In this document: positions 2,927 through 35,070 of the stretch, piece after piece
How positions within the stretch are numbered: position 1 is the first letter of the stretch
Layout of the letters: every line of letters starts with the position of its first letter
Assembly (NCBI RefSeq): GCF_014904695.1
Contig: NZ_JACXXN010000023.1
Coordinates: 1 to 64,000, forward strand
DNA from: Nostoc sp. MG11
GTDB taxonomy: Bacteria; Cyanobacteriota; Cyanobacteriia; Cyanobacteriales; Nostocaceae
DNA: 64,000 bases
Direction of reading: 5' to 3'
The notes under the pieces: model-generated
Told to the model about the DNA's origin: nothing
What the model saw: only the letters and a program-made list of their open reading frames with translations
Database searches by the model: none
Made by a program: the position numbers and the translations under genes

Positions 2927-3295
2927 CTAAAGCATATGCTCTACGCGACTCAAGCGTTCTGAGTAGCTTTTCATCACCTTTATAGAAAACACAGGTGTTT
3001 CTTGAACGGCAAAGAGAAACCCTTGCTCATCTAAGAAAGCAAGTTTGCAGTCTGTTTTGGCAATAGCTGTATAAGTTCTATTTTTTACTCCAACAAGTAC
3101 CCCAACACCAAAAACTTCGCCTGTCTCAATTGTCTCTACAACCTTATCATTAACTAATATATCAACTTCTCCTTCCAGGATGCCGTACATGAAATCACCA
3201 GGCTGTCCTTCTTCAAAGATGATTTGACCTGCTGAAAATACTTTAGGGTTAGGTTGTTTTTGAAAGATACTGACTGTTACTACAGGGCTTAACAT
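2927..3295 (-). CDS. Single-domain cyclic-nucleotide-binding (Crp-like) protein
   Basis: A 122-residue protein consisting almost entirely of one cNMP-binding beta-barrel (residues about 16-110). FEEGQPGDFMYGILEGEVDI is the typical first half of the fold. The phosphate-binding cassette region (ETGEVFGVGVLVGVKNRTYTA) lacks the canonical RxA(S/T) arginine pattern that I would expect, having NRTYTA instead. There is no helix-turn-helix or effector domain, so it cannot act as a Crp-type DNA-binding regulator by itself. Stand-alone domains of this kind in cyanobacteria are usually annotated only by fold. ATG start; monocistronic with its own terminator. Confidence 0.85.
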   Translation of the reverse strand: MLSPVVTVSIFQKQPNPKVFSAGQIIFEEGQPGDFMYGILEGEVDILVNDKVVETIETGEVFGVGVLVGVKNRTYTAIAKTDCKLAFLDEQGFLFAVQETPVFSIKVMKSYSERLSRVEHML

Positions 3296-3826: not shown

Positions 3827-4128
3827 ACAAGAAATATTGGGATATTTTATTACTTGGAAGTCCCTTAGTGTTCCCGCTTTCTTAGTAACTGGCGTGCGAC
3901 TTCAGTCGTCGGGTACTTTTGTAAAAAATTTATTAAAGTGTATTTTTTAGACAAAAGCTAAGGTAATAATTACTAGAAAAAATATTTTTTATCAAAGACA
4001 AAAATCATTTAATTATGTCTATAAAATATGGAATTTCATATGAAAACTTAATATACAAGTTCCTGATATTTTGACTAATAAAGTAGAATTTAAGAGTCAA
4101 ATTGGCTAATGACTCCGAGAGTAAGGTA

Positions 4129-4359
4129 ATGACTAACATATCAGTTTTTGATTTTAATCTTAGTAATGTAGAGACATTTCTGCATGACCTGGCTCCAGCG
4201 CAATCTAAGACTGTATTGGGTGGTTCCTTTGATGCTCGTGTATTGACTATTCATGACGGCATAAATCGTGTAGAGGATCAGATTTTTGGTTTCAACAGTG
4301 AGCACGATAACAACTATAGCTCGGTAGACAATTCAGATAAGGTTTCAATTTGGGCATAA
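4129..4359 (+). CDS. Small peptide with Gly-Gly leader-like motif, copy 1
   Basis: A 76-residue peptide from the ATG at 4129; an in-frame TTG at 4102 would add nine residues. It is the first of four paralogues. The N-terminal part (FDFNLSNVETFLHDLAPAQ) ends in TVLGG at about residues 28-32, which fits the double-glycine leader pattern of exported bacteriocin-type precursors: hydrophobic residues at -12 and -4, Gly-Gly at -2/-1. The 44-residue remainder carries two blocks shared by the family, LTIHDGIN and HDNNYSSVDNSDKV. The stop lies 2 bp before copy 2. No maturation enzyme or transporter is adjacent, so export and processing are inferred, not shown. Confidence 0.65.
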   Translation: MTNISVFDFNLSNVETFLHDLAPAQSKTVLGGSFDARVLTIHDGINRVEDQIFGFNSEHDNNYSSVDNSDKVSIWA

Positions 4360-4361
4360 TC

Positions 4362-4592
4362 ATGGCAAAAATACTAGTTTTTGACTTTCATTTTAGTGAT
4401 GTAGAAATATTTCTGCATGAGCTGGCTTCAGCGCAAGCTGAGAATATATGGGGTGGTTCCTTTTTTGCTGAGATCATGTCAATTCATGACGGTATAAATC
4501 GTAAAGAATCTCAGTATTTTGGTGTAGGCGGCAACCACGACAATAACTATGGCTCGATAGACAATTCAGATCAAGTTTTCATTAAGGCATAA
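4362..4592 (+). CDS. Small peptide with Gly-Gly leader-like motif, copy 2
   Basis: A 76-residue paralogue of its neighbours. I use the ATG at 4362 (MAKILVFDF) rather than the in-frame ATG at 4350, because copies 3 and 4 start with the same MAKI and the longer start overlaps copy 1. The leader-like part ends ENIWGG; the remainder has SIHDGIN and HDNNYGSIDNSDQV. The first roughly 70 bases are nearly identical to copy 3, showing a recent tandem duplication. The gaps to copies 1 and 3 are only 2 bp each, so the three are probably translated from one transcript. Confidence 0.7.
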   Translation: MAKILVFDFHFSDVEIFLHELASAQAENIWGGSFFAEIMSIHDGINRKESQYFGVGGNHDNNYGSIDNSDQVFIKA

Positions 4593-4594
4593 TC

Positions 4595-4837
4595 ATGGCA
4601 AAAATACTAGTTTTTGACTTTCATTTTAGTGATGTAGAAATATTTCTGCATGAGCTGGCTCCAGCGCAAGCTGAGACTGTATTAGGTGGTTATTTTTCTG
4701 CTAAGATCATGACCATTCATGACGGCATAAATCGTGTAGAAACTCAGACTTTTGGTTCATACAGTACCCACGATAATAACTATAACTCGATAGACAATTC
4801 CGACCAAGTTTACATTTGGGCTTATCCTTATTGGTAG
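4595..4837 (+). CDS. Small peptide with Gly-Gly leader-like motif, copy 3
   Basis: An 80-residue paralogue. The leader-like segment FLHELAPAQAETVLGG is the best match in the set to a double-glycine leader. The putative core has TIHDGIN and HDNNYNSIDNSDQV and ends with an extra aromatic tail, AYPYW, absent from copies 1 and 2. It is separated from copy 2 by 2 bp and from the divergent copy 4 by 289 bp of repeat-containing DNA. Asp, Asn and Ser are frequent in the core and there is no Cys, which makes a lanthipeptide or disulfide-type product unlikely. Confidence 0.7.
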   Translation: MAKILVFDFHFSDVEIFLHELAPAQAETVLGGYFSAKIMTIHDGINRVETQTFGSYSTHDNNYNSIDNSDQVYIWAYPYW

Positions 4838-5126
4838 CCGAAGAAAGGATGAAGGATGAAATACTCTCGACTTAATCGGATACAGAGCAACTGAATTTCT
4901 TGGTGTAAGGGTTAATACTAAATCCCAAATCCTAAATCTAAAATTAGTTAACGTGAGAAAACTCTGAGTGTCAGCTTTCGGTGCTTAGAACCTCAAAAAC
5001 AGATTACCGTCAGACATCGCTTTAATAATTGAGGGCGAAGCAGATAATTTTTTCAGACCACTTGTTGGCAATTGCACTCCACTCAAGTAGCACAACTGTT
5101 CATAACCTGACCTAGAAATTAAGACA

Positions 5127-5393
5127 ATGGCTAAAATAGTAATTTCCGACTTACATCATGTTGATGCAAAGCCATTTTTGCATAACAAAATTTCAGTACC
5201 AATAAATGCCACATTAGATAGTTGTTTTCCGTATGTGTGGGGTGGTAATTCAGAACTTGAGTTAACCACTGTTCATGATGGAATAAACAACACATCATCT
5301 ACATCTAATGGGCCTTTTGGTATATATGACAACAATATGTTCACTCTTGACTTTTCCAGATTGACTATCAATTTGATACTCTGGATGGTCTAA
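5127..5393 (+). CDS. Divergent small peptide of the same family, copy 4
   Basis: An 88-residue, more diverged member starting MAKIVISDLHH. It keeps FLH, a WGG motif (residues about 38-40) and TVHDGIN, and the DNN of the second block (IYDNN), but the remaining core differs and ends in a hydrophobic tail. Cyanobacterial Gly-Gly bacteriocin-like precursors often begin with a short I-x-I-S-D-L motif, which matches this copy best. It has its own upstream gap, so it may have a separate promoter. Transposase remnants start just downstream on the other strand. Confidence 0.6.
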   Translation: MAKIVISDLHHVDAKPFLHNKISVPINATLDSCFPYVWGGNSELELTTVHDGINNTSSTSNGPFGIYDNNMFTLDFSRLTINLILWMV

Positions 5394-5407: not shown

Positions 5408-5772
5408 CTAACTGGCTTTTACAGAAATGTGCAAATAGATATAACTATTTGCATATTCTTCTATGGCTGAAGCTAACTGGACTGTTCCTCGAATTACAAG
5501 TGATGAAGGAGCGGCTTTACGACCAATACAACGAGGTTGATGATGTCGTAAAACACCAAACACCTGTTCAAGATCATTCACCATATATTCTTTGTGTTCG
5601 CTAGTTTACTTGAATATCTGATCTTCTCTAGCAAGCTTTGCCGCTCTAGTTTTTTTTGTAATTCCGAAATTTCTTTCTTCCTCGGTTTCTTATAAGGTGT
5701 GGTAATTGTTAAATCTCCTATATAAGCTTTATCCCCAATAAATTTTTCCCACAGACTTTGTTTTAAGGACAT
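5408..5772 (-). pseudogene. Transposase remnants, frameshifted or mosaic
   Basis: Two coding stretches on this strand are out of frame. The first (5578-5772) has GDKAYIGDLTITTPYKKPRK, resembling the C-terminal catalytic region of IS5-type DDE transposases. The second (about 5408-5595) reads EYMVNDLEQVFG, then HHQPRCIGRKAAPSSLVIRG, resembling the C-terminus of another transposase. Neither has an N-terminal half, a start in context or terminal repeats. They mark past insertions beside the small-peptide genes. Assignment to families is from memory of motifs only. Confidence 0.6.
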
Positions 5773-5777
5773 GTCTA

Positions 5778-5996
5778 ATGGATAGTTGGGTCAGCTCTCG
5801 CCTGAGGCTTAGATTTGAAACTGGACAGGGAAAGTTAGTAATTTACCGTCCAGATGGACAAAGATTTTTGAACTCGTTAGAACTCAATCAACGGGCAGAA
5901 CGGGCTGAGTTATTGCTAGCACAAGAACGCCAACACGCAGACCAGTTAGCAGCATACTTACGTGGTATTGGCATTGACCCCGACAATCTCCCATAA
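5778..5996 (+). pseudogene. C-terminal fragment of an Uma2 (DUF820) family protein
   Basis: The 72-codon frame reads WVSSRLRLRFETGQGKLVIY, then RPDGQRFL, a charged Glu/Arg-rich helix, and ends AAYLRGIGIDPDNLP. This is the usual C-terminal tail of cyanobacterial Uma2 family putative endonucleases, which normally have about 190-240 residues. The nuclease core is missing, so this is a remnant. Compare the full-length member at 43891-44466, which lacks this tail. Confidence 0.7.
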
Positions 5997-21192: not shown

Positions 21193-23214
21193 ATGAATTT
21201 ATTATTCAGAATCTTCCACCAGTTAATTAACAGTTCATTAAACAATTTGCTGAAGCTGAGAAATACGCACTTATTAATTTTCGATATCATTGTTTTTTCA
21301 ATTACTCCCTTGTTAGCTCTGCTTTTGCGTTTAGACGGCTATTTAGATAAAGCACATATATCAGAACTGGGAATTGCAACAATACTGTTTTTAGCAGTCA
21401 AATTAACTGTATTTTGGAGTTTTGGTTTTTATAGACGTTACTGGCGCTATGCCAGTATTGAGGAACTGACATATATAACCATGTTGATGGTGGGTGCAGT
21501 AATTGTCCAAACAATGTCATTTGATATTCTTCATGACACACAGCCTTTTATTATAAATAATCTGCCGCGATCGCTGCCATTTATTGATGGGTTATTGTCG
21601 TGTATTTTCATTGGAGCATTGCGTTTTAGTGTTCGGATTGTGGAAAGATTTAGTCAACGACAAACAGTATTTAACCCACGAGAGCGGGTACTGATTATTG
21701 GTGCTGGTAGTGCCGGAGTTTCCCTTGTACAAGATATGCAACGCAATCCCCAACTGGGTTTTCAGGCTATTGCCTTCATTGACGATGATCCTCGAAAGTT
21801 AAATGCACATATTAGCGGCATTCCAGTAGTTGGCGATCGCCATCAAATTTCTGATACTTTGAAATCTCTCCAAATCCATAAAGTTATCATTGCCATGCCT
21901 ACTGTTGCTGGAAAAGTCATTCGGGAAATTGTAGATATTTGCAAAGCTACTGGAATCCAGACTAGTACCTTACCTGGAATACATGAAATCCTCAATGAGC
22001 GTGTGCGAGTAGATAGTATTCGGGATGTCAGGATTGAGGATTTACTCAGACGAGAACCCGTACAGACAGATATTGAGCGAGTGTCTAAATTTATCAAGGG
22101 TAAGACAGTATTAATCACAGGCTCAGGTGGATCAATTGGTAGTGAACTTTGCCGACAAATTTTCAAATGCCAGCCTAGCAGAATGATACTTATTGGACAT
22201 GGAGAAAATTCTGTATTCAACATCCAACAAGAATTAGACCAACTTATTCAAGTACTTAAAAATGATGGCAAATCGCCAATAAATACCCCTCATATTTACA
22301 CTTTTATTGCTGATCTTCGATTTCGATATCGATTAGAACATGCTTTTGAGCGATTCCAACCTGATGTAATTTTCCACGCTGCGGCTCACAAGCATGTCCC
22401 CTTGATGGAATTAAATCCGCCAGAAGCAATTACTAACAATGTAATCGGGACAAAAAATTTACTAGAAGTGGCGCTGAAATATGATGTGAAACATTTTGTG
22501 ATGATCTCCACAGATAAAGCAGTTAATCCCACAAATGTTATGGGAGCTAGTAAAAGAGTTGCTGAAATGTTGGTACTGCAAGCTGCAAGGGAAAGTGGAA
22601 AGCATTATGTTACCGTGCGTTTTGGCAATGTTTTGGGTAGTCGTGGTAGTGTAGTTCCCACTTTTAAAAAACAAATTGCTACAGGTGGCCCAGTAACCGT
22701 TACCCATCCCGATATCTGTCGTTATTTCATGACCATTCCAGAAGCAGTTCAACTTGTTTTACAGGCTGGGGTACTTGGTCGTGGTGGTGAAGTTTTAATG
22801 CTGAATATGGGTGAACCTGTCAAAATTGTTGATTTAGCTAAGGAACTGATTCGCCTTTCAGGGTATGAGGTAAACAAAGACATTGACATTGTGTTTACAG
22901 GATTACGACCAGGGGAAAAGTTATTTGAAGAACTATTTATTAAAGGAGAGGAATATGAACCAACTCAGCACAAGAAACTATTTGTTGTTAAAAATGCCAG
23001 TCGGATTATTCCCAAAAATCTAAATTTAGGTGTGGAAAGATTGTGTATAGCAGCAGCTAAAAATGATGTTAATTCTATCCTGTTTTTGCTTGAGCAATTG
23101 ATATCAGGATACAAACCAAAATACTTGGAAAATAATCTATCAATAGGCAATTCAAGAAATAGTGCTCTATTCAAAAACTCCAATGGAAATACGCTGACGA
23201 AAGCAGAACCATGA
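21193..23214 (+). CDS. Membrane nucleotide-sugar 4,6-dehydratase (CapD/WbpM/PglF family)
   Basis: 673 residues. Four N-terminal membrane helices, a first Rossmann domain (VLIIGAGSAGVSLV, about residue 166), then the catalytic SDR domain (TVLITGSGGSIGSELCRQI, about 309). The active site reads STDKAVNPTNVMGASKR: Asp-Lys replaces the Tyr-x3-Lys seen in soluble epimerases, typical of this family. Members convert UDP-GlcNAc to the 4-keto-6-deoxy sugar. It is the first gene of the polysaccharide cluster. With the aminotransferase at 33067 and the transferase at 34300 it suggests an amino-deoxy sugar. A Lys/Asn-rich tail follows the fold. Confidence 0.92.
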   Translation: MNLLFRIFHQLINSSLNNLLKLRNTHLLIFDIIVFSITPLLALLLRLDGYLDKAHISELGIATILFLAVKLTVFWSFGFYRRYWRYASIEELTYITMLMVGAVIVQTMSFDILHDTQPFIINNLPRSLPFIDGLLSCIFIGALRFSVRIVERFSQRQTVFNPRERVLIIGAGSAGVSLVQDMQRNPQLGFQAIAFIDDDPRKLNAHISGIPVVGDRHQISDTLKSLQIHKVIIAMPTVAGKVIREIVDICKATGIQTSTLPGIHEILNERVRVDSIRDVRIEDLLRREPVQTDIERVSKFIKGKTVLITGSGGSIGSELCRQIFKCQPSRMILIGHGENSVFNIQQELDQLIQVLKNDGKSPINTPHIYTFIADLRFRYRLEHAFERFQPDVIFHAAAHKHVPLMELNPPEAITNNVIGTKNLLEVALKYDVKHFVMISTDKAVNPTNVMGASKRVAEMLVLQAARESGKHYVTVRFGNVLGSRGSVVPTFKKQIATGGPVTVTHPDICRYFMTIPEAVQLVLQAGVLGRGGEVLMLNMGEPVKIVDLAKELIRLSGYEVNKDIDIVFTGLRPGEKLFEELFIKGEEYEPTQHKKLFVVKNASRIIPKNLNLGVERLCIAAAKNDVNSILFLLEQLISGYKPKYLENNLSIGNSRNSALFKNSNGNTLTKAEP

Positions 23215-23278
23215 GGTACTGGATCAACTAGAGAATTTGAGCTTTGTCTTGATGTAGTGTTCATCCAACAACTCCAAT

Positions 23279-24274
23279 ATGAAAGTAATTCATAATCGTC
23301 ACAGCTTAGTACATGGCTTAGATAGCAGATCTGTTGTAAATTCAAGCTACTTTTCTTCTTTGAAAAAAATGGCAAGAACTTTTGTCAGAAGAAGATGTGA
23401 ATGGTCAATTGGAATTTACACAGGCAAATCACTTTTTGATTTCAGTTCAACAGAAAATATCAAAAATCCAGTTTTGACTGCAAAAGATGTAACAGATGTA
23501 ACAGCCGACTTTGTTGCCGACCCGTTTATGGTTCGTCATAACGACATTTGGTATATGTTTTTTGAAGTACTGAATAGTCTTAATGATAGAGGAGAAATAG
23601 GACTAGCAACTAGCAATGATGGATTCAATTGGGATTACAAAAAAATAGTAATTAAAGAACCGTTCCACTTGTCTTATCCTTATGTGTTCAAATTCCAAAA
23701 TGAATATTACATAATTCCAGAAAGTTATGAAGCTAATTCTATTCGCTTATACAAAGCAGTTGACTTTCCTACTAAATGGACATTTGTAAAAACTTTAATA
23801 GATGGTAGAGATTATGTAGATAGTTCTATTTTTAATTTCAATGACAGGTGGTGGATATTTACATCGTCGTCACAAAGCAATATTCTCCGTCTCTATTATG
23901 CTGATGACCTGATGGGGCATTGGATTGAACATCCTCAAAGCCCTATTATCGAAGACAATCTAAACATAGCAAGACCAGGAGGAAGAGTAGTAGTATATGA
24001 TGGTCAAATTTTCCGATATACCCAGGATGATGAGCATTTGTATGGTAATCAAGTGCGAGCGTTTGAAATAACCCATCTAACAACAACAACTTATGAAGAA
24101 AAAGAAGTTAGAGAAAATCCTATTTTAAAACCTAGCGGCTTTGGTTGGAATAAAAGCGGTATGCATAATATCGATCCTCACCAGATTACAAAAGATAAAT
24201 GGATAGCCTGTGTGGATGGATATCATATAGTTTTTGTGTTTGGTGTAGATCTGCAAAAGTTAATATCACTTTGA
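23279..24274 (+). CDS. Propeller-like glycan protein (GH43/GINT1 N-domain-like), copy 1
   Basis: 331 residues with no signal peptide. Repeated blade-like blocks (ADPFMVRHNDIWYMFFEVLN, SYPYVFKFQNEYYIIPES, GRDYVDSSIFNFNDRWWIF, NIARPGGRV) resemble the five-bladed propeller fold of GH43-type proteins and the N-terminal domain named after glucosamine inositolphosphorylceramide transferase. An Asp in ADPF and Glu in PES would occupy catalytic-like positions. Its role in the cluster is unknown: sugar transfer, trimming or binding. It is a clear paralogue of 30805-31722 but has a different last 16 residues, and an extra 38 N-terminal residues. Confidence 0.75.
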   Translation: MKVIHNRHSLVHGLDSRSVVNSSYFSSLKKMARTFVRRRCEWSIGIYTGKSLFDFSSTENIKNPVLTAKDVTDVTADFVADPFMVRHNDIWYMFFEVLNSLNDRGEIGLATSNDGFNWDYKKIVIKEPFHLSYPYVFKFQNEYYIIPESYEANSIRLYKAVDFPTKWTFVKTLIDGRDYVDSSIFNFNDRWWIFTSSSQSNILRLYYADDLMGHWIEHPQSPIIEDNLNIARPGGRVVVYDGQIFRYTQDDEHLYGNQVRAFEITHLTTTTYEEKEVRENPILKPSGFGWNKSGMHNIDPHQITKDKWIACVDGYHIVFVFGVDLQKLISL

Positions 24275-24278
24275 CCAG

Positions 24279-25547
24279 ATGCAACAAAAAAAGATACTAA
24301 CACTACGCCACAATTTCTCCTGGACTTTCACTGGCAATTTTGTTTATGCAGTTTGCCAGTGGGGAATATTGGTAATGTTAGCTAAACTCGGTAATCCAGA
24401 GATAGTAGGTCAGTTTACTTTGGGACTGGCAGTCACAGCACCCGTAATTATGTTGACAAATCTCCAACTACGAATTGTTCAAGCAACAGACGCTAAAAAA
24501 CAATATCGTTTTAGCGATTACTTGGGGCTGAGGCTGATTTCGACAATGTTGGCACTTCTGGTCATTGCAGTCATTAGTCTGTCAGGAGGATATCGCTGGG
24601 AAATATCCTTAGTTATCTTTTTGATTGGTCTGGCAAAAGCATTTGAGTCTATTAGCGATGTATTTTATGGGCTAATTCAGCAGCATGAGCGCATGGATCG
24701 GATTGCGACATCATTGATGATTAAAGGGCCTCTAGCACTGCTATTACTGGGCATTGGAGTACATATATCCGGCCGTATTTTGTGGGGTGTAGTTGGGTTA
24801 ATTTTTGCTTGGGCTGTGGTGTTGTTTGGCTACGACATTCGTAGTGGAATCTTAATGCTAAAGCAGAGGTCACAATTGCAACCTCGTTGGCGTTGGAAAA
24901 CTTTAGCGCATCTGATATGGCTCTGTTTGCCTTTAGGGCTTGTGATGATGTTAATTTCACTTAATAGCAATATTCCTCGCTATTTTATTGAGCGATATTT
25001 AGGTGAGCGAGAACTGGGTATTTTTGCAGCCATAGCCTATCTAATGGTGGCAGGAGGCATGGTAGTAAATGCCCTAGGGGAGTCAGCTATTCCTCGCTTG
25101 GCCAAATATTATGCAGAGGGCGATCGCATAGCTTTCCGCACGCTCCTACTCAAGCTGGTAGGAATTGCTACTCTATTGGGCGGAGCAGGTGTTTTAGTGG
25201 CTGTGGTGGCTGGGCGGCAGATTCTAACTATCCTGTATCGGCCTGAATATGCCGAGCACACAAATTTGTTTATCTGGCTAATGGTTGCGGCTGGGATTAA
25301 CTACGTATCGTCCTTCCTCGGCTATGGAATGACGGCAGCCCGGTACTTCCGCATTCAAATGCCTTTGTCCGCCGTTGTGGCAAGTATCTCAGCCATAGCT
25401 TGTTTATGGTTCCTGCCCAAGTGGGGATTGTTAGGAGCTGCGATCGCGCTATTGATTGCGGCAATTATCCAAGCAGGTTTAAGTTTGGCAGTTATTCTCC
25501 ATGCACTGCATAAGCCACACAGATATATAGAAGGAGTAAAATCATGA
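24279..25547 (+). CDS. Polysaccharide flippase (Wzx-like)
   Basis: 422 residues, strongly hydrophobic, with about 12 membrane segments and the N-terminal NFSWTFTGNFVYAVCQWGIL pattern of the oligosaccharide-flippase (MOP) superfamily. It would move lipid-linked repeat units across the cytoplasmic membrane. It starts 4 bp after the preceding stop and overlaps the next gene by 4 bp (ATGA), so it is translationally linked to both. Together with the polymerase at 26883 it marks a Wzx/Wzy-type pathway. Confidence 0.88.
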   Translation: MQQKKILTLRHNFSWTFTGNFVYAVCQWGILVMLAKLGNPEIVGQFTLGLAVTAPVIMLTNLQLRIVQATDAKKQYRFSDYLGLRLISTMLALLVIAVISLSGGYRWEISLVIFLIGLAKAFESISDVFYGLIQQHERMDRIATSLMIKGPLALLLLGIGVHISGRILWGVVGLIFAWAVVLFGYDIRSGILMLKQRSQLQPRWRWKTLAHLIWLCLPLGLVMMLISLNSNIPRYFIERYLGERELGIFAAIAYLMVAGGMVVNALGESAIPRLAKYYAEGDRIAFRTLLLKLVGIATLLGGAGVLVAVVAGRQILTILYRPEYAEHTNLFIWLMVAAGINYVSSFLGYGMTAARYFRIQMPLSAVVASISAIACLWFLPKWGLLGAAIALLIAAIIQAGLSLAVILHALHKPHRYIEGVKS

Positions 25548-26734
25548 CGTTATGTAACAAGCCTTCTATCCGCATTCTGCAAGTTGTTGGTGGGATGAAC
25601 CGGGCTGGAACAGAAACTTGGCTAATGCATATCCTTCGCCAGATTAATCGCGATCGCTTCCAGATAGATTTTCTAGTTCATACAACTGAACCCTGCCATT
25701 ACGATCACGAAATTCGTACTCTTGGTAGCAAGATTATTGTCTGTCCTCATCCACACTCCCAACCTTGGAAGTATGGCCACAACTTTAAACAGATTCTAAA
25801 AAAGCATAAACCTTATGACGTTATTCACAGTCATGGCCATCACTTTAGTGGTTACGTTCTCCGTTTGGCCCATCAGATAGGTGTTCCCGTCCGTATTGCC
25901 CACAGTCATTTTGATAGCTCCTCGGTTGAAGCTAAAACTAGTTTGAAGCGTAAATTGTATCTGGGTTTGATGAAAAGATGGATTTCCCAGTATGCCACTG
26001 TTGGGTTGGGATGTAGTCGAAATGCAGCAGCAGATTTATTTGGGATGAAGTGGGAAAACGATTCCCGGTGGCAATTACTTTATTGTGGTATTGACCTAGC
26101 TCCATTCCGAAATACATTTGACTCTGACGCTGTGCGTGCTGAATTGGGTATACCTGCGGATGCCTTTGTTCTGGGTCATGTAGGTAGATTTGATGCGGCA
26201 AAGAATCATTTGTTTCTTCTGGACATAGCATCAGAAATTGCCAAGCGAGAACCGAAAATGCGCCTCTTGTTGGTTGGTGACGGCAAGCTACGCCCAGAGA
26301 TCGAGCAAAAAGTTGTTCAGATAGGCTTGGCCGACCATGTAATTTTCGCAGGTGTCCGTTCTGATGTTCCCCGATTGATGCTAGGTGCTATGGATTTATT
26401 GATTTTCCCATCTCTTTATGAAGGATTGGGCTTAGTGTTAGTTGAAGCACAAGCCGCGGGACTATCTTGTATTCTTTCTAATGTTATTCCTCAAGAAGCA
26501 GATGTAGTAAAACCTTTGATGCATCGGATATCGTTATTGAAACCAGCTTCTACTTGGGCCGATGCAGTTATGGAAACTAAGCAAGATACAGCAAAAATCA
26601 ACCAATTAGAAGCGTTTAAAACTGTAGAAAATAGTCTATTTAATATTCAAAGAGGAGCTAGAGAATTGGAACTTTTATATATGGAGCAACTAAATTACCT
26701 TTCTGTTCTACAGAAAAGTCTAATAGTCACTTGA
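25544..26734 (+). CDS. Glycosyltransferase family 4 (EpsF-like)
   Basis: 396 residues with a GT-B fold. The N-terminal acceptor domain begins ILQVVGGMNRAGTETWLMHI and has HSHGHHFSGYVLRLA. The donor domain has GHVGRFDAAKNHLFLLD, LLVGDGKLRPEIE and the E-x7-E motif in PSLYEGLGLVLVEAQAAGL. This layout matches retaining GT4 enzymes of exopolysaccharide loci. It overlaps the flippase by 4 bp. Sugar specificity is not predictable. Confidence 0.9.
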   Translation: MTLCNKPSIRILQVVGGMNRAGTETWLMHILRQINRDRFQIDFLVHTTEPCHYDHEIRTLGSKIIVCPHPHSQPWKYGHNFKQILKKHKPYDVIHSHGHHFSGYVLRLAHQIGVPVRIAHSHFDSSSVEAKTSLKRKLYLGLMKRWISQYATVGLGCSRNAAADLFGMKWENDSRWQLLYCGIDLAPFRNTFDSDAVRAELGIPADAFVLGHVGRFDAAKNHLFLLDIASEIAKREPKMRLLLVGDGKLRPEIEQKVVQIGLADHVIFAGVRSDVPRLMLGAMDLLIFPSLYEGLGLVLVEAQAAGLSCILSNVIPQEADVVKPLMHRISLLKPASTWADAVMETKQDTAKINQLEAFKTVENSLFNIQRGARELELLYMEQLNYLSVLQKSLIVT

Positions 26735-26882
26735 TAAAGTAAATAATTAATAGACTTAAGCTATTGCACTATAGACTTGAAAACCTTATTGATTTTAGTA
26801 AAATTTGTCTTAGAACTTAGATATTACAAAGCATAAAAACGTTGTAAATTTTCATTCAAATAATCAAATCTAAGTTATTAGT

Positions 26883-28082
26883 ATGCAAAATTCCATGAAA
26901 CTTGAATTTAAAAAGCAACAAATTCTTACATTAATAATTCTAGCCGTCTTATTCGGCTCATCATCTATTACTAACTTAGGGAGTTCTGAAATTCCCCTAG
27001 ATTCAGCCATCGAAAAACTGCGCTATGTTCTAATTCTTACAGCATTAATGACTCTTCTACTATTATCCCGCTTTGATATATGGGGGTTCCCGAAGAAACA
27101 ACTGCCTCTAATTATAGTCTGGATTTTACTAGGTTTTATATCAGTAATATCTGGAGTTGTTAACGATGATTTAGTCTCTGTTAGAGATGGACTCTGGTTT
27201 ATGATTATAAGCCCAATGATTTTCTTTTATAGCTTACCTAAGTTGATGAAACAATATGCAAATTTTCTGCTTGCTACGTCACTTTTTTTGGGTCTTCTTC
27301 CTTATATAGTTATGTCTTTATTGCTACATCCAATCAATCAATTTCAAGGTCATTCAGATGCAAGTTATGCAGGCGTCTTTCCTAATCCCAATGATTTAGG
27401 ATTTACAAGTGTGACAATGGCATCTGGACTTTTTATTATTTTGATTGGTAGTTTGTCTGCTAAAAAGAGATTATGGTATATTTTACCGATTATTTTATGT
27501 TTAATTTTTCTCTTTGTAATTATTATTTTAGCTAATGCACGTACATCCTTAATTGCCTTTTTTGGTATGTTATCTATATTTATGTGGAGGTTATTTCAAA
27601 AATCTGGATTTTTGATTAAATTTGTTAATAGTATTGCCCTAAGCATCAGCGCCATCTTATTATTAGCAGATGAACAGTTTTATTTATTCTTCTTGAATAA
27701 CCTTAATCAATTACAAGATAAAGATGGTTTGAGTGGTAGAGAATATATTTGGAATAAGACATTTGAAGATGTAAAGTTATTGGGTAATGGTGCAGACTAC
27801 TTTGAATTAAATTTTGGTTTAGGAGGCCATAATACGATTATCAATACCCTTGGAACAATCGGTATTATTGCGGCATTTTTGATGTTATTTCTAGCATCTC
27901 TTAGTATCTTCTATGCTTATTTATATTTCAAAACTCATTCAAAGACAGACCACTATGCTATTGCACCTCTAGTAATTACAATATGTTTCTGGATTACATC
28001 TATGGGTGAGGGTATGTTTAGTGCTTTAGGTACAGCAATGACTGTTGCTTATTTTCTGTGTATTGGAATTATTGTGGCATAA
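26883..28082 (+). CDS. O-antigen polymerase/ligase-like membrane protein (Wzy-like)
   Basis: 399 residues with about ten hydrophobic helices. The large periplasmic loop region contains NARTSLIAFFGML, then DGLSGREYIWNKTFED and GLGGHNTIINTLGTIG, the pattern of the O-antigen ligase/polymerase family, which joins lipid-linked glycans on the outer face of the membrane. In a cluster with a flippase and a Wzc-like protein, a polymerase role is more likely than ligation. AT-rich coding sequence compared with flanking glycosyltransferases, which is common for wzy. Confidence 0.85.
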   Translation: MQNSMKLEFKKQQILTLIILAVLFGSSSITNLGSSEIPLDSAIEKLRYVLILTALMTLLLLSRFDIWGFPKKQLPLIIVWILLGFISVISGVVNDDLVSVRDGLWFMIISPMIFFYSLPKLMKQYANFLLATSLFLGLLPYIVMSLLLHPINQFQGHSDASYAGVFPNPNDLGFTSVTMASGLFIILIGSLSAKKRLWYILPIILCLIFLFVIIILANARTSLIAFFGMLSIFMWRLFQKSGFLIKFVNSIALSISAILLLADEQFYLFFLNNLNQLQDKDGLSGREYIWNKTFEDVKLLGNGADYFELNFGLGGHNTIINTLGTIGIIAAFLMLFLASLSIFYAYLYFKTHSKTDHYAIAPLVITICFWITSMGEGMFSALGTAMTVAYFLCIGIIVA

Positions 28083-28225
28083 CTAAATCCAAAAAAAGAA
28101 ATAGAAAAATATTATACTCATGCCATAATTTCATTTATTAATAAAAAGTAAGACACCTAATTTTGCTCACTTTTAGATATTAAAAGGCTAGAAAGCAAGT
28201 AAATCAATTTTTGTTAAGGAGAGAA

Positions 28226-29464
28226 ATGCTTAAAGAATATATTTTTAAATGGAGACGAACAATATTATTATTTATATTACCCATGTTACTTATTCTCTGT
28301 TTCTCTGCTTACGGTAACAAAATTTATCAACTTCACAACTTGGTTGATAATCAAGTGACTAGTACAATTGCTAATAGCACTATTAAAAATAACAGTAACA
28401 GCACGATTAGAATTAAAGGCAAGCCATTCTTCCCGTTTGGTTTCTACCATGAATCATATAATTTGACTTTTCAACAGTTAATACAAGCAGTTCGTGATCT
28501 TGCTGCTGCGGGATTTAACACCATTTTTGCCTCTTGTGACAACCTTGATAATTATGGTGTATTTCTTGATGAAGCCGAGCGAGTTGGTGTTTTTGTTATC
28601 ACAAGCTTTAATGTTGATGACCCTCTTGCAGTTGTCAAGAAATTCAAGGATAAACCAGCTGTTCTGGGCTGGGGAATTGCCGATGATGTTGGTGATCACG
28701 AAACCCGAAATGAAATATTAGCTTTTCACAAACAAATTAAAGCTATTGATCCTAAACATTTTACCTACATTAGTATCAGTGGTTGGTCGAGAAAATGGTT
28801 AGGCCATTCTAATATTGCGGATTTAATTGGCGGTCAATCTTACCCTATTAGCTATCCTTTCAACAACAAACCTAAAGGTTTAGCAAATGATTTAAGTACA
28901 GTACATCATGTCTTCAATATTGGTCGCTTTGAAGCAAATAAATATAATCGTCCAGTCATTGCAAACTTGCAGACTTTCCGTTGGGAAGAAGGACGCTGGC
29001 CAACTGCTAATGAAGTGTATAACATGACATATCAGGCACTTTTAGCTGGTGTTAAAGGTATTCTTTTCTACACTTATGAAGGCTATAAGGATAACAGCAT
29101 AAGACAAAAACCGGATGTATGGAGTCGTGTAAAGTCTATAGTGCCCGAAATAAACAGGCTCACCCCAGTATTGTTAGAAGGCACTTTGACGAAGCTCGAT
29201 ACTAAATTTGATGATGTGCTTGCCGGACAGTGGATATACGGCAACAGTGTTTATTTAGTTGTTTTGAATACATCACAAACAGAAACAAGACAAGTTGTGA
29301 TCACAATCCCGACTCCAGCAAAAGGTTCAGCGCAACCACTATTCTCAGGGCGTCCATCAGGGATGCGTTTTCAAGATGGTAAATTAAGAGGTTTTATAAA
29401 GCCTGAAGATGTTCATATCTATCAATTATCTCAGTCAAGAGTTCTGAGTACAACGAAGGAATGA
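28226..29464 (+). CDS. Membrane-anchored TIM-barrel glycoside-hydrolase-like protein
   Basis: 412 residues from the ATG at 28226, which has AAGGAGA just upstream; the frame reaches a TTG at 28211. One N-terminal membrane helix, a short Asn/Thr-rich linker, then a (beta/alpha)8-like domain: IKGKPFFPFGFYHES, DLAAAGFNTIF, LGWGIADDVGDHE, DLIGGQSYP and GVKGILFYTYEG. A small beta domain closes the protein (LVVLNTSQTETRQVVI). It resembles the clan of GH2/GH42-like barrels, but the usual catalytic Glu after strand 4 is replaced by ADD. It may trim or recognise the exported glycan on the outer face. Confidence 0.7.
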   Translation: MLKEYIFKWRRTILLFILPMLLILCFSAYGNKIYQLHNLVDNQVTSTIANSTIKNNSNSTIRIKGKPFFPFGFYHESYNLTFQQLIQAVRDLAAAGFNTIFASCDNLDNYGVFLDEAERVGVFVITSFNVDDPLAVVKKFKDKPAVLGWGIADDVGDHETRNEILAFHKQIKAIDPKHFTYISISGWSRKWLGHSNIADLIGGQSYPISYPFNNKPKGLANDLSTVHHVFNIGRFEANKYNRPVIANLQTFRWEEGRWPTANEVYNMTYQALLAGVKGILFYTYEGYKDNSIRQKPDVWSRVKSIVPEINRLTPVLLEGTLTKLDTKFDDVLAGQWIYGNSVYLVVLNTSQTETRQVVITIPTPAKGSAQPLFSGRPSGMRFQDGKLRGFIKPEDVHIYQLSQSRVLSTTKE

Positions 29465-29516
29465 TATAGATGATCTGATTTTCTCAACAAATGCTTAACT
29501 AGGTTAAACCAAACAA

Positions 29517-30716
29517 ATGAACGTATTAGTTACAAACTCTGCTCACTTTGTGATCACTAGCGATGGCACTCTATGGACTGCGGATGCTGCAACTCGTTAT
29601 AGTATCTGGACTAGATATTTAGATGTATTCAATGAAGTTCATTTGTTGGTGCGTGTTAAATTCTGTGGCGAACCTCCTAAAGCATGGGTTAAGGCTTCAG
29701 GTTATGGAGTCAAACCTATTCCAATACCCGACTTTGTAGGGCCATCATGGGAGTATGTGAAAAACTACGTGAGTATAAAAAGAGCTATAAGCAAGGCAAT
29801 AGCAAATGCTGAGGCTATACAGTTGCACGTACCATGCATAATTGCTGGCGAAGCCTGGAACTCTATGCCATCACGAAGACCATACTTTGTTGAAGTGATT
29901 GCTGACCCCTACGATGATTATGCTCCAGGATCTATCAAGCATCCCTTGCAACCCTTGTTTCGTTGGTGGTTTACCCGCCAATTACAACGGCAGTGCCAGC
30001 AAGCTTCTGCGGCTCTTTATGTCACAAAACAAGCACTACAACGACGTTATCCTTGCCCAAAATACTCTGTAGGCGTATCTGATGTAGAGCTTCTAGAAGG
30101 TACGTTAGTATCCAAACCCCGCCCGATTCAACAAGAAAAACGCACATTTAAGCTAATCATAGTAGGTTCACTGGCTCAACTCTACAAAGCGCCAGATGTA
30201 TTGATTGAAGCTGTTTCTATCTGCGTCAAAGAAGGATTAGATCTGAAGTTAATTTTTGTCGGAGATGGTCGGTATCGAGCAGAGTTAGAGGCAAAATCTG
30301 TGGCACTGGGCTTAGGCGATCGCGTCTTGTTTCGTGGACAGTTACCAACCAGCGAAGCTGTGCGTGAGCAATTAGATCAGTGCGACCTTTTCCTTTTGCC
30401 TTCTCGCATGGAAGGCTTGCCCAGAGCGATGGTTGAGGCAATGGCGCGATCGCTACCTTGTATTGGCTCAACAGTGGGCGGTATCCCCGAATTGCTACCT
30501 GCTGAAGATATGGTGACAGCAGGAGATGCAGTTGCTTTAGCACATAAGATTCGAGAAGTTGTCACCAACCCAGAACGCATGGCTTTAATGTCTGCTCGTA
30601 ATCTAAATAAGGCAAAAGAGTACAAAAGAGAAGTTCTCAAAGAGCAGCAGGTTGCTTTTTATCGCTATGCGCGAGAAAACACCCAAGAGTGGTTAAAGGC
30701 AGCGAAGTTATTTTAA
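29517..30716 (+). CDS. Glycosyltransferase family 4
   Basis: 399 residues, GT-B fold. The donor-binding half is clear: FKLIIVGSLAQLYKAPDVLI, LIFVGDGRYRAELE, and the motif PSRMEGLPRAMVEAMARSLP with the two Glu residues of E-x7-E. GSTVGGIPELL contacts the donor in homologues. The N-terminal acceptor domain is less conserved. It lies 52 bp after the TIM-barrel gene in the same direction. Likely adds one sugar of the repeat unit on the cytoplasmic side. Confidence 0.9.
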   Translation: MNVLVTNSAHFVITSDGTLWTADAATRYSIWTRYLDVFNEVHLLVRVKFCGEPPKAWVKASGYGVKPIPIPDFVGPSWEYVKNYVSIKRAISKAIANAEAIQLHVPCIIAGEAWNSMPSRRPYFVEVIADPYDDYAPGSIKHPLQPLFRWWFTRQLQRQCQQASAALYVTKQALQRRYPCPKYSVGVSDVELLEGTLVSKPRPIQQEKRTFKLIIVGSLAQLYKAPDVLIEAVSICVKEGLDLKLIFVGDGRYRAELEAKSVALGLGDRVLFRGQLPTSEAVREQLDQCDLFLLPSRMEGLPRAMVEAMARSLPCIGSTVGGIPELLPAEDMVTAGDAVALAHKIREVVTNPERMALMSARNLNKAKEYKREVLKEQQVAFYRYARENTQEWLKAAKLF

Positions 30717-30804
30717 TTTATCAAGTAGCAATTTAAGTTGCTACTTCACTCTTGAATTAGCATTGGCGTATTATCTGTACTAAAAAATCAGAAGCGAATT
30801 CAAT

Positions 30805-31722
30805 ATGCTAAATATCAATCTATTTCCTGTTATTAAGAATCAAATTAAAAAGATTATTGGAAAAAAGAATGATTGGGCAATTGGAATTTATCAAGGAAAT
30901 TCTTTGGTTGACTGGGAAGCTCTTAACAATATTTGCAATCCGGTTTTGACTGTTAAGGATGTCAGTGATGTGTCAGCAGAGTTTATTGCCGATCCTTTTA
31001 TGATTTTGGCGAATGGTACTTGGTATATGTTTTTTGAAGTACTGAATAAGGCTAATGGGCTAGGTGAAATTGGTTTAGCAACTAGCCAAGATGTGCTCAA
31101 TTGGAATTATCAAAAAATCATCTTGCGGGAAGATTTTCACTTGTCTTACCCTTATGTATTTTATTGGCTCAACGATTATTACATGATTCCAGAAAGCTCA
31201 CAAGCAAATGCTATTCGCTTATATAAAGCAGTTGATTTCCCCAGGCAATGGTGTTTTGTGAAAAATCTAATTGAGGGTAGAGATTATGTAGATACTTCTA
31301 TTTTTTACTTTGATAATAAGTGGTGGCTATTTACATCATCAACAGCAAGTAATATTCTGCGACTCTATTATGCTGATGAAATCATGAGTTATTGGGTTGA
31401 GCATCCTCAAAGTCCTGTAATTGAGGACGATGCAAAAATAGCCAGACCAGGAGGGAGAGTTATCGTAAATAATGGCACGGTTTTTAGATATGCCCAAGAT
31501 GACCAGTACTTATACGGTACAAAAGTTCGGGCATTTGAAATCATTGTGCTGACAACAACAGCTTATAAAGAAAAACCAATTGCAGAAAATCCCATTCTTC
31601 AAGCAAGTGGCTCCGGCTGGAATAAAACAGGAATGCATCATATTGATGCTCACAAGATTGATGAAAATAAATGGATAGCCTGTGTGGATGGATATCAAAT
31701 GTCATTAGGAGCTTGGACATAG
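30805..31722 (+). CDS. Propeller-like glycan protein (GH43/GINT1 N-domain-like), copy 2
   Basis: 305 residues, a close paralogue of 23279-24274. The shared blocks include WAIGIYQGNSL, ADPFMILANGTWYMFFEVLN, SYPYVFYWLNDYYMIPES, GRDYVDTSIF, ARPGGRV and KWIACVDGYQ. It lacks the 38-residue N-terminal extension of copy 1 and ends MSLGAWT. Conservation of the same positions in both argues that both are functional. Having two copies in one polysaccharide cluster suggests action on two related acceptors. Function is not established. Confidence 0.75.
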   Translation: MLNINLFPVIKNQIKKIIGKKNDWAIGIYQGNSLVDWEALNNICNPVLTVKDVSDVSAEFIADPFMILANGTWYMFFEVLNKANGLGEIGLATSQDVLNWNYQKIILREDFHLSYPYVFYWLNDYYMIPESSQANAIRLYKAVDFPRQWCFVKNLIEGRDYVDTSIFYFDNKWWLFTSSTASNILRLYYADEIMSYWVEHPQSPVIEDDAKIARPGGRVIVNNGTVFRYAQDDQYLYGTKVRAFEIIVLTTTAYKEKPIAENPILQASGSGWNKTGMHHIDAHKIDENKWIACVDGYQMSLGAWT

Positions 31723-31735
31723 GAAGTGTATTGAC

Positions 31736-32932
31736 ATGACTCAATATCCGAAAATGACGCTAGTGCATATCTCAACCGTGGCTGAAACATTAGAATTTAT
31801 CAACGGTCAGTCTAGTTACATGAAGGAACGAGGTTTTGAAATTCACGCGATCGCTTCTCCTAGTGAGTTGCTGACTCAATTTGGCGATCGCGAGCAAATT
31901 ACCGTTCATTCTGTCAATATGCCCAGACAGATTACTCCATTAAAGGATCTGTATGCCTTATTTCACCTCTGGCGGCATTTACGCCAAATTCGTCCCGACA
32001 TTATTCATGCTTATAGTCCTAAAGGAGGACTCTTAGGTATGATCAGTGCTTGGCTAGCAGGAGTTCCTGTCCGCGTATATCACATATATGGTTTACCATT
32101 AATGACCGCCGTTGGCTACAAACGCTTGTTGCTTTGTTTGAGTGAAAAGGTTTCCTGTTTGCTTGCCAACCAAGTATTGTGTGTCAGCCATTCAATTCGC
32201 AAAGTAGCAATTTCTGAAAATCTTTGCCCAGAAGCGAAGGTCAAAGTGCTGCTTAAAGGTGGGGTTACGGGTGTGGATGCTGCCAATCAGTTCAATAAAG
32301 CAAATTTGGCTGCAAATGTCCGCCTAAAAACGCGCAAACAATTTAATATTCCTACCGATGCTTTAGTAATAGGCTTTGTGGGGCGGATCGTTCGTGATAA
32401 GGGTTTAGCAGAACTGGTATCAGCGTGGAAAATTTTGTCCTCTGAGTTTCCCAATTTGCATTTGCTTGTTGTCGGCCCTTTTGAACCACAAGATCCAGTA
32501 TCAGAAGATGTGGAATATACGCTCAGAAATGATGCCCGCATCCATTTGACAGGAAGGCGATCGCACATATCCCCCTTATATGCGGCAATGGATATTTTGG
32601 CTCTGCCATCTTATCGGGAGGGTTTGAGTACTGTAATTTTAGAAGCGGCAGCAATGCAATTGCCAGTAGTAGCTACGCGCATTCCGGGTTGCATAGACGC
32701 AATCCAAGAAGGTGTCACAGGCATATTGGTGTCACCGTATAATGCACAGGCATTAACAGATGCAATTCGCACATATTTGCAGGATTCAAAATTGCGTCAC
32801 AGTCACGGGCAGGCAGGGCGCGAGCTAATTTTACAAGACTTTATTCCAGAAGCAATGTGCAAAGCGATATATCAAGAATATGTTCGGCTGCTAACAGAAA
32901 AAAGATTATTATCTCCTAATCATTTGGGCTAG
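31736..32932 (+). CDS. Glycosyltransferase family 4 (PglA/WbpU-like)
   Basis: 398 residues. The opening LVHISTVAETLEFINGQSSY and the block IIHAYSPKGGLLGMISAWLAG match the group that adds a HexNAc to an undecaprenyl-linked amino sugar. Donor half: GFVGRIVRDKGLAEL, LLVVGPFEPQDP and PSYREGLSTVILEAAAMQLP (E-x7-E). GT4 enzymes of this kind often follow the PglC-type transferase in the pathway, and that gene is present at 34300. Separated from the propeller gene by 13 bp. Confidence 0.9.
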   Translation: MTQYPKMTLVHISTVAETLEFINGQSSYMKERGFEIHAIASPSELLTQFGDREQITVHSVNMPRQITPLKDLYALFHLWRHLRQIRPDIIHAYSPKGGLLGMISAWLAGVPVRVYHIYGLPLMTAVGYKRLLLCLSEKVSCLLANQVLCVSHSIRKVAISENLCPEAKVKVLLKGGVTGVDAANQFNKANLAANVRLKTRKQFNIPTDALVIGFVGRIVRDKGLAELVSAWKILSSEFPNLHLLVVGPFEPQDPVSEDVEYTLRNDARIHLTGRRSHISPLYAAMDILALPSYREGLSTVILEAAAMQLPVVATRIPGCIDAIQEGVTGILVSPYNAQALTDAIRTYLQDSKLRHSHGQAGRELILQDFIPEAMCKAIYQEYVRLLTEKRLLSPNHLG

Positions 32933-33066
32933 GTGAATAGAAAGTAGTACTTGATTGTGTAGTGATCAAACACGTAGGAAAAAATTACACACTCCTAGAG
33001 TCTTATTAAAGTAGCTAATAAATAGGTTGACTGTTTAAGTTCTTAGTTGTTTATAGGTATATCATT

Positions 33067-34218: not shown

Positions 34219-34299
34219 TCCTCTTTTTCTTGCCATCAGTAAACATTTAATTGCTTTAGAGATTACCTAATTGGATTTTTCACGGACTATTACCTGATT

Positions 34300-34893: not shown

Positions 34894-35070
34894 AACTTAA
34901 ATCATCAGTTTGATAGGCTAGGTCTGATATTTTAGATCATTCTCAACAAGCTCAGATAAACCGGGTTTTAAAATGATAAATCTTTAATATTCTCAACAAA
35001 GTCTGTTTGTGACTTTGATAAAATCATTCTCTGCATTTAATTACAAAATATAAAGTTTAAAAAGTTATTT

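What the first reader, a model, noticed from the sequence alone, without database searches (positions are those of the whole stretch)
4129..5393. Tandem family of four small peptides with Gly-Gly leader-like motifs and conserved HDGIN / HDNN cores
Four paralogues of 76-88 residues lie in one 1.3-kb patch; copies 1-3 are 2 bp apart. All have a conserved N-terminal half ending in VLGG, IWGG or VWGG, and a core with (T/S)(I/V)HDGIN and, in three, HDNNY-x-S-(I/V)-DNSD. Seen directly: duplication, spacing and motif conservation. Established: double-glycine leaders are cut and exported by C39-peptidase ABC transporters, and cyanobacterial bacteriocin-like precursors often begin with an I-x-I-S-D-L-type motif, as copy 4 does. 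Inferred: these are exported precursor peptides, perhaps maturing in trans. No cysteine is present in the cores of copies 1-3, so they are not classic lanthipeptides. I know no named family with these core motifs.
Basis: partly seen in the sequence, partly recalled or inferred. Interest (0 to 1): 0.72.

Follow-up and report, generated by a model that had tools for sequence, protein, structure and literature searches.

The report
Paired exported peptides of Nostoc cyanobacteria
Four small neighbouring genes in a Nostoc-type cyanobacterium belong to an unnamed family of small proteins that carry a cut-and-export tag and come in two matching kinds; in relatives they often sit beside the export machine they probably use, which makes their secretion and partnership directly testable.

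Summary
In detail: four paralogues (76, 76, 80, 88 aa) at 4129-5393, all with HDGIN. They belong to a family with no Pfam, NCBIfam or PDB-sequence match, found in 55 of 192 sampled genomes of the window's family (22 of 56 genera). Leaders of copies 1-3 fit the double-glycine export signal; copy 4's VWGG is displaced and weak. In 17 of 59 loci examined, family genes lie beside HlyD and a cNMP-C39-ABC exporter, in 14 of them in the order HTH, C39, HlyD, A-like, B. All 55 genomes with the family carry that exporter lineage (one by a lower-scoring but adjacent HlyD); in this genome it is on another contig, with an intact C39 motif. So export in trans is the best reading. The family has two kinds, B (D-F/L/M-S) and non-B (mostly D-Y/N-S), together in 39 of 43 multi-gene loci. 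What the secreted pair does is unproven; I favour an EbfG-like surface or matrix role over a bacteriocin, signal or modified peptide.

The parts
4129..4359 (+). Copy 1, precursor, 76 aa, non-B subtype (D-N-S)
   Evidence: in-frame TTG at 4102 is an alternative start
4129..4224 (+). Leader of copy 1, 32 codons ending VLGG
   Evidence: L at -15 and -12, Q at -8, V at -4, GG at -2/-1
4362..4592 (+). Copy 2, precursor, 76 aa, non-B subtype
4362..4457 (+). Leader of copy 2, 32 codons ending IWGG
4595..4837 (+). Copy 3, precursor, 80 aa, non-B subtype; core under purifying selection against its orthologue in G084
4595..4690 (+). Leader of copy 3, 32 codons ending VLGG; nearer to the copy 2 leader (5 of 96 nt differ) than to its own orthologue (9 of 96)
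5127..5393 (+). Copy 4, 88 aa, subtype B (D-F-S ... LTINL); LDS at the canonical GG place
5235..5246 (+). VWGG of copy 4, 8 residues after the canonical GG place; fits the leader pattern poorly (C at -8, T at -12)

Best explanation
The four genes encode precursors of small exported proteins of one undescribed family ('DN family', my label). The first 32 residues of copies 1-3 are a double-glycine leader. A peptidase-containing ABC exporter (cNMP-binding domain, C39 peptidase, ABC) with its HlyD partner cuts after GG and exports the core of 44-48 residues. In this genome the exporter is encoded elsewhere (contig C177) and acts in trans. The products are of two kinds, non-B (A/N) and B, kept together in most multi-gene loci, and probably work as a pair outside the cell. 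Because the cores are conserved, I think a conserved extracellular role (surface or matrix proteins, as EbfG1-4 of Synechococcus elongatus) is likelier than a bacteriocin. Shown by sequence and gene order: the family, the leader pattern, the HlyD/C39 operon in relatives, the nested co-occurrence with that exporter lineage, the A+B pairing. Inferred: cleavage, export, export in trans, joint action, extracellular role. My odds: about 0.8 that these are exported GG precursors, about 0.65 that the C177 system exports them in trans, about 0.4 for a surface or matrix role. The confidence below is for export in trans.
For: Leader positions conserved over 145 members: L21 80%, Q/E25 88%, I/V29 77%, G31 90%, G32 76%. 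17 of 59 loci beside HlyD, C39-ABC and HTH; in 14 of these the order is HlyD, A-like member (13 A, one odd motif), B on the same strand. C39, HlyD and cNMP domains by Pfam. Exporter lineage (HlyD query from C177, >=680 bits) in 100 of 192 genomes and in 54 of 55 family-positive ones; the 55th, G034, has HlyD at about 626 bits (estimated from E 6.4e-188) adjacent to its family genes. Genera: 22 of 22 within 32 of 56. G000's C177 exporter falls inside the DN-linked set of a 23-row tree, is 80% identical to a linked one, has an intact QQSSSDCGAAC motif, and shows no family gene in the ~870-bp gap where relatives have A and B. B and non-B together in 39 of 43 multi-gene loci, shuffles 28.7 +/- 2.7, 0 of 10000 as high. 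Core nearly as conserved as leader.
Against: No exporter on the window's contig and in 35 of 59 loci neither C39/HlyD nor DevB nearby. 46 of 192 genomes have the exporter lineage (>=680 bits) without a detected family member. With a 720-bit threshold only 38 of 55 family-positive genomes count as carrying it. The co-occurrence and pairing tests are not corrected for relatedness. B-type members often lack GG at the canonical place: 24 of 53 have it. The branches placing C177 inside the linked set have moderate support (89/91, 89/92). Copies 1 and 2 have dN/dS near 1 against G084, on few changes. Nothing here shows expression, cleavage or secretion. Folds were predicted with low confidence (pLDDT 46 and 36).
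Confidence: 0.65

Rival explanations
1. Two-peptide bacteriocin: the exported A and B cores act together against competing cyanobacteria; the DevBCA-like exporter beside B in some loci would give self-protection or a second export step.
For: Two kinds kept together in 39 of 43 multi-gene loci; exporter clusters of the sort called bacteriocin clusters by Wang 2011 (PMC3140520); B is the nearest member to DevB in 7 of 7 DevB loci, 46-252 bp away.
Against: Cores are conserved across genera, whereas other GG peptides of the same clusters have variable cores; no immunity-like gene recurs beside the orphan loci among the neighbours I clustered.
Confidence: 0.25
2. Cell-to-cell signal: the exported cores, released by a HetC-like exporter whose cNMP domain may sense ppGpp, inform neighbouring cells of the filament.
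For: The linked exporter has the domain order reported for HetC (cNMP, C39, TM, ATPase; and PMC10986499 passages); the family is confined in my samples to the window's family of cyanobacteria; conserved cores.
Against: Only 55 of 192 genomes of the family have it, so it is no general part of heterocyst control; products of 44-48 residues in several copies are large for a signal; no receptor candidate recurs.
Confidence: 0.12
3. Modified peptide (RiPP): Ser/Thr of the conserved T/S-x-D-x-S stretch are dehydrated by the APH + HopA1 pair of the neighbourhood, as in class V lanthipeptides, before export.
For: APH and HopA1 lie within the fetched stretch in 10 of 17 C39-linked loci; APH matches LxmK weakly (76 bits, cut-off 315); CaoK/CaoY dehydration is shown in PMC9486802 (passages and one section).
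Against: HopA1 is in 190 of 192 genomes, so it does not track the family; where read, APH/HopA1 adjoin other GG peptides on the other strand from the DN genes; 7 of 17 linked loci have no HopA1 in the stretch fetched; no Cys in 53 of 53 A cores.
Confidence: 0.1
4. Not exported: small cytoplasmic proteins whose GG is incidental.
For: B-type members often lack GG at the canonical place and orphan loci are common.
Against: GG in 49 of 53 A and 28 of 28 N members, conserved leader positions, operon with C39/HlyD and nested co-occurrence.
Confidence: 0.08

Closest known systems
Precursors of cyanobacterial group II 'bacteriocin' clusters (Wang, Fewer and Sivonen 2011, PMC3140520; parts 1-3 of 5 read)
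   Same: GG leader; clusters with a long C39-ABC (N-terminal cNMP/CAP_ED domain), HlyD, a rotamase and, in some loci, M16 peptidase. Some members may be among that paper's 58 unclassified group II precursors; its tables were not seen.
   Different: The paper stresses very little core conservation; here the core defines the family and comes in two kinds. Many members lie away from any exporter.
EbfG1-4 of Synechococcus elongatus and the exporter PteB (PMC4997328, part 1 and passages; PMC9981879, passages)
   Same: Four tandem small GG proteins that depend on a C39 exporter; secreted, with a conserved exporter cysteine needed.
   Different: I had no EbfG sequence to compare; the papers report no sequence similarity of EbfG to known proteins. 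The matrix/amyloid role is shown for EbfG, not for the DN family.
HetC and its unknown substrate (PMC10986499, abstract passages and discussion passages)
   Same: Same exporter domain order; authors leave open that the substrate gene lies elsewhere in the genome, as the DN genes do here.
   Different: DN-linked exporters have an adjacent HlyD, HetC has none nearby (per the paper); the family is in only 55 of 192 genomes.
Class V lanthipeptides (LanK/LanY; PMC9486802 passages and section 7)
   Same: APH and HopA1 genes occur near some family loci; type-B candidate LanA peptides in that paper are all cyanobacterial.
   Different: A cores have no Cys (0 of 53), and APH/HopA1 adjoin other GG peptides.
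Prochlorosin-type systems (recalled; PMC10783134 seen in listing only)
   Same: Many dispersed precursors served by one system in trans.
   Different: No LanM is tied to the DN family; prochlorosins have variable cores (recalled).

Membership tests
Double-glycine peptides (substrates of peptidase-containing ABC exporters) | Leader with hydrophobic -4 and -12, acidic/polar -8, G-2 and G-1 (pattern recalled) | tested here: met
   Copies 1-3 fit; family columns conserved. Copy 4 does not fit at the canonical place, and 29 of 53 B members lack GG there.
Double-glycine peptides (substrates of peptidase-containing ABC exporters) | Encoded with a C39-ABC exporter | tested here: inconclusive
   Met in 17 of 59 loci from relatives; not met in the window, whose contig has no C39.
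Double-glycine peptides (substrates of peptidase-containing ABC exporters) | Cleavage after GG during export | not testable with these tools
   Needs exoproteomics or in vitro cleavage.
Cyanobacterial group II bacteriocin precursors (Wang 2011) | Cluster with long C39-ABC (cNMP domain), HlyD, rotamase | tested here: inconclusive
   C39/HlyD in 17 of 59 loci and rotamase (PpiC) in 10 of these 17 stretches; absent around the window copies.
Cyanobacterial group II bacteriocin precursors (Wang 2011) | Conserved leader with diverse core | tested here: not met
   Core identity 0.34 / 0.29 / 0.34 against leader 0.38 / 0.34 / 0.48 for A / B / N; control peptides 0.15 against 0.58.
NHLP and N11P (Nif11-type) precursors | Match to curated family models | tested here: not met
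   None of 48 members matches any NCBIfam or Pfam model at E <= 0.01.
Class V lanthipeptide precursors | Cys and Ser/Thr in the core | tested here: not met
   0 of 53 A cores have Cys; 8 of 53 B and 9 of 28 N do; window copies 1-3 have none.
Class V lanthipeptide precursors | LanK (APH) and LanY (HopA1) in the same cluster | tested here: inconclusive
   In 10 of 17 C39-linked loci but beside other peptides; none of the six HopA1 of G000 is on the window's contig.
EbfG-type matrix proteins | Secreted, needed for biofilm, amyloid-forming (EbfG1-3) | not testable with these tools
   Needs mutants and Congo-red or fibril assays.
Two-peptide bacteriocins | Two different cores always encoded together | tested here: met
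   B with non-B in 39 of 43 multi-gene loci; exceptions L049, L051, L156, L159.
Two-peptide bacteriocins | Dedicated immunity gene and antibacterial activity | not tested
   No recurring small neighbour seen beside orphan loci; activity needs an assay.

The most novel reading that the evidence does not exclude
A lineage-specific two-component system of Nostoc-type cyanobacteria: paired small proteins A and B, exported in trans from dispersed loci by one HetC-like, possibly nucleotide-gated C39 exporter, whose conserved D-N-[KN]...[TS]-x-D-[YNF]-S core is the working part and assembles or signals at the cell surface; the DevBCA-like exporter beside B in some genera would be a second station of the same pathway.
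Probability: 0.3. Interest if true: 0.72.

Novelty: new variant of a known kind. Interest (0 to 1): 0.5.

Why it matters
Double-glycine peptides are usually found next to their exporters and recognised by conserved leaders and variable cores. This family departs from both: many loci are away from any exporter, and the core is nearly as conserved as the leader. It gives a concrete list of candidate substrates for cNMP-C39 exporters in Nostoc-type cyanobacteria, a class in which the substrate of the best-studied member, HetC, is still unknown, and a paired A+B arrangement that deletion and exoproteomics can test.

Tried and rejected
Tried without result: Pfam and NCBIfam with the four copies (only hits far below cut-off) and with 48 members, PDB sequences with the profile; plasmid collection by tblastn with copy 3 (no match; records very near the window may be left out there). 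AlphaFold2 for copy 3 and copy 4 with 20 sequences gave mean pLDDT 46 and 36, cores mostly strand but below usable confidence, so no fold search was run. Promoter and terminator scans gave no more than shuffles (6 against 6.2; 1 against 0.9). The Cellvibrio hit (L012) has a stop in the stretch I translated and no family motif by profile and was dropped.

Considered and rejected: lanthipeptide (no Cys in A cores); HopA1/APH as cognate enzymes (HopA1 in 190 of 192 genomes; adjacent to other peptides); a functionless duplication (orthologues in relatives, copy 3 core dN 0.009 / dS 0.077). An internal HDGIN/HDNN repeat was looked at by eye only and is not claimed.

Rows dropped before counts: 6 of 151 profile hits in the 59 loci were left out as leader-only or partial. 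The 59 loci were picked from family hits, several per genome in some cases, so they are not an independent sample. The nearest-exporter count (23 of 55) used the best HlyD per genome and 27 typed family positions from lists that the tool had cut, so it is a lower bound. For G034 the HlyD place came from my locus L144 and its score (626 bits) is my estimate from the E-value. HlyD-positive genera (32) were tallied by hand from the tables.

Full report
What is there. The four genes are open frames at the stated places. Copies 1-3 form a tandem repeat with 233-nt spacing, the second and third 77% and 80% identical to the first. The window is the first 64 kb of contig C139 (98.8 kb) of an 8.4-Mb genome, G000, which has three more members, on C172, C99 and C162. 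Relatives with the nearest copies are Nostoc sp. B(2019), Atlanticothrix silvestris CENA357 and two Komarekiella species; their contig lengths equal those of G084, G015, G105 and G119.

A family, not four oddities. A search with copy 3 found relatives in 45 of 192 genomes of the same family at E <= 1e-3. A profile of 48 members (A1) finds 55 of 192 at E <= 1e-12, in 22 of 56 genera. In a sample of 386 genomes of the phylum it finds 23 at E <= 1e-5, all in the window's own family; the tool scored only part of its first-look candidates in each genome, so weak members may be missed. None of the 48 members matches Pfam or NCBIfam at E <= 0.01, and the profile has no PDB-sequence match at E <= 1. 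'DN family' is only my label.

Leader. Over 145 members from 59 loci the N-terminal part keeps I4 (89%), F17 (77%), L21 (80%), Q/E25 (88%), I/V29 (77%), G31 (90%) and G32 (76%). Counted back from GG these include -12, -8 and -4, positions that, as I recall, mark double-glycine leaders. Copies 1-3 fit. Copy 4 reads LDS at that place and has VWGG 8 residues later.

Two kinds. The residue between D67 and S69 splits the 145 members: Y (A, 53), N (28), F/L/M (B, 53), other (11). Window copies 1-3 are N, copy 4 is B. Of 43 loci with two or more members, 39 hold both B and non-B; shuffled labels give 28.7 (sd 2.7) and 0 of 10000 shuffles reach 39. Related loci are not independent, so this is support and not a probability. 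GG stands at the canonical place in 49 of 53 A and 28 of 28 N, but in 24 of 53 B.

Neighbours in relatives. I clustered neighbour proteins and named representatives with Pfam. In 17 of 59 loci family genes lie beside HlyD, a cNMP-C39-ABC exporter and an HTH protein. In 14 of the 17 the member nearest HlyD is A (13) or an odd-motif member (1), 126-1316 bp away on the same strand, with B beyond it; L056 has B nearest and on the opposite strand, and L157 and L158 have a single B. In 7 of those 14 a PpiC-type isomerase follows; overall PpiC is in 10 of the 17 stretches, and APH plus HopA1 in the same 10; two stretches (L074, L081) end within 500 bp of the last member, so absence there means little. 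In 7 other loci, of three genera, the peptides lie beside DevB- and DevC-like genes (DevA in 6), and in 7 of 7 the member nearest DevB is B, 46-252 bp away on the same strand. One of these DevB proteins scores 329 bits against a curated cut-off of 129. The remaining 35 loci, the window among them, have neither C39/HlyD nor DevB in the stretch fetched.

The exporter of this genome. G000 has 12 C39 matches, none on the window's contig. The one on C177 is the closest to the DN-linked exporters: 80% for the C39-ABC, and up to 73% for HlyD, 77% for PpiC and 83% for HTH, against at most 60%, 60% and 70% for the other G000 loci compared. In a tree of 23 it falls inside the DN-linked set with moderate support (89/91 and 89/92), and it has an intact QQSSSDCGAAC motif. 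Where relatives have A and B, it has a gap of about 870 bp without a family member at E < 0.1. Across 192 genomes, HlyD of this lineage is in 100 at >=680 bits, and 54 of the 55 family-positive genomes are among them; at 690 bits 52 of 55 within 87, at 720 bits 38 of 55 within 66. The one missing at 680, G034, has a HlyD at about 626 bits (estimated from its E-value) 210 bp from its family genes. By genus 22 of 22 within 32 of 56 (hypergeometric 3e-8, not corrected for relatedness). Within genus g7, where 11 of 28 genomes have the lineage, all 4 family-positive genomes are among the 11 (P 0.016). In at least 23 of 55 genomes a member lies within 5 kb of this HlyD. The converse does not hold: 46 genomes have the lineage at >=680 bits and no detected member.

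Core conservation. After removal of near-duplicates (70%), mean pairwise identity of leader and core is 0.38 and 0.34 for A (33 sequences), 0.34 and 0.29 for B (32), 0.48 and 0.34 for N (14). For other GG peptides of the same clusters and of G000's C39 loci (SELFxDSES type, 9 left of 24) it is 0.58 and 0.15. So the core is nearly as conserved as the leader, unlike the very little core conservation described by Wang et al. 2011 (PMC3140520, parts 1-3 of 5 read). The most conserved core positions are D67 (93%), N61 (88%), S69 (83%), D43 (82%), G54 (78%) and D60 (73%).

Selection and recent history. Against the G084 orthologues, copy 3 core has dN 0.009 and dS 0.077, copy 4 overall 0.024 and 0.055; copies 1 and 2 have dN/dS of 1.04 and 1.00, on few changes. 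The copy 3 leader differs from copy 2 of the same genome at 5 of 96 nt and from its own orthologue at 9 of 96, while its core differs from its orthologue at 3 of 132; I read this as conversion of the leader by copy 2.

How it most likely works. Shown: the family, the leader pattern, the operon in relatives, the exporter lineage in the same genome, the A+B pairing. Inferred: C39 cleavage after GG in copies 1-3, export by the C177 exporter and HlyD in trans, joint action of A and B. How B is cut is open. For the role outside the cell I favour a conserved surface or matrix function as in EbfG1-4, four tandem GG proteins whose efficient secretion needs the C39 exporter PteB (PMC4997328, part 1 of 5 and passages) and of which EbfG1-3 form amyloid and EbfG4 is on the surface and in the matrix (PMC9981879, passages). 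This rests on analogy. A bacteriocin pair, a signal and a modified peptide are not excluded.

Relation to the known. The linked exporter has the HetC domain order. HetC's cNMP domain binds ppGpp in vitro, and its authors leave open that its substrate is encoded elsewhere in the genome (PMC10986499, passages). The DN-linked clusters resemble group II of Wang 2011, and some members may be in that paper's 58 unclassified group II precursors; its tables were not seen. Nine paper searches listed nothing whose title or shown abstract describes this family; that is the extent of my claim that it is undescribed.

Noticed in passing
L104 (G000 contig C177, 1-14000), 212-7286: Four other GG peptides followed by APH and HopA1 genes and then DevC/DevB-like genes (about 42% identical to those beside DN genes in L076). 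G000 has six HopA1 genes, each beside an APH gene.
   Followed up: partly
L102 5723-6172; L105 10588-11221; L101 11294-11461 (G000): Further GG-peptide genes beside C39-ABC/HlyD and APH/HopA1, with quite different cores (for example TYTVTLTRTYSYTWTRTRTF repeats).
   Followed up: no
L053 5661-7163 and the like in L050, L059, L060, L065, L076: A sigma-70 region 2 protein (ECF-like) and a 234-aa protein without Pfam match lie 0.5-1.9 kb from DN genes in 6 of 59 loci; a possible regulator pair.
   Followed up: partly
window 4362-4690: The copy 3 leader looks converted by copy 2 (5 of 96 nt apart) while its core stays orthologous to that of G084.
   Followed up: partly
window 2927-3295, minus strand: A 122-aa protein that is a lone cNMP-binding domain (62.7 bits) upstream of the peptides; kept near them in four genomes (cluster 18).
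   Followed up: no
window 5578-5996: Two short frames on opposite strands that by eye resemble remnants of a transposase and a Uma2-type gene; no Pfam match.
   Followed up: partly
window 21193-37275: Long run of plus-strand genes that by eye looks like an exopolysaccharide cluster; not searched.
   Followed up: no
L062 9916-10188, L053 8251-8547 and others: A subgroup with GGYC...(S)C cores and IDNSKK.Y.NG ends, 9 of 28 N-type members with Cys in the core.
   Followed up: no
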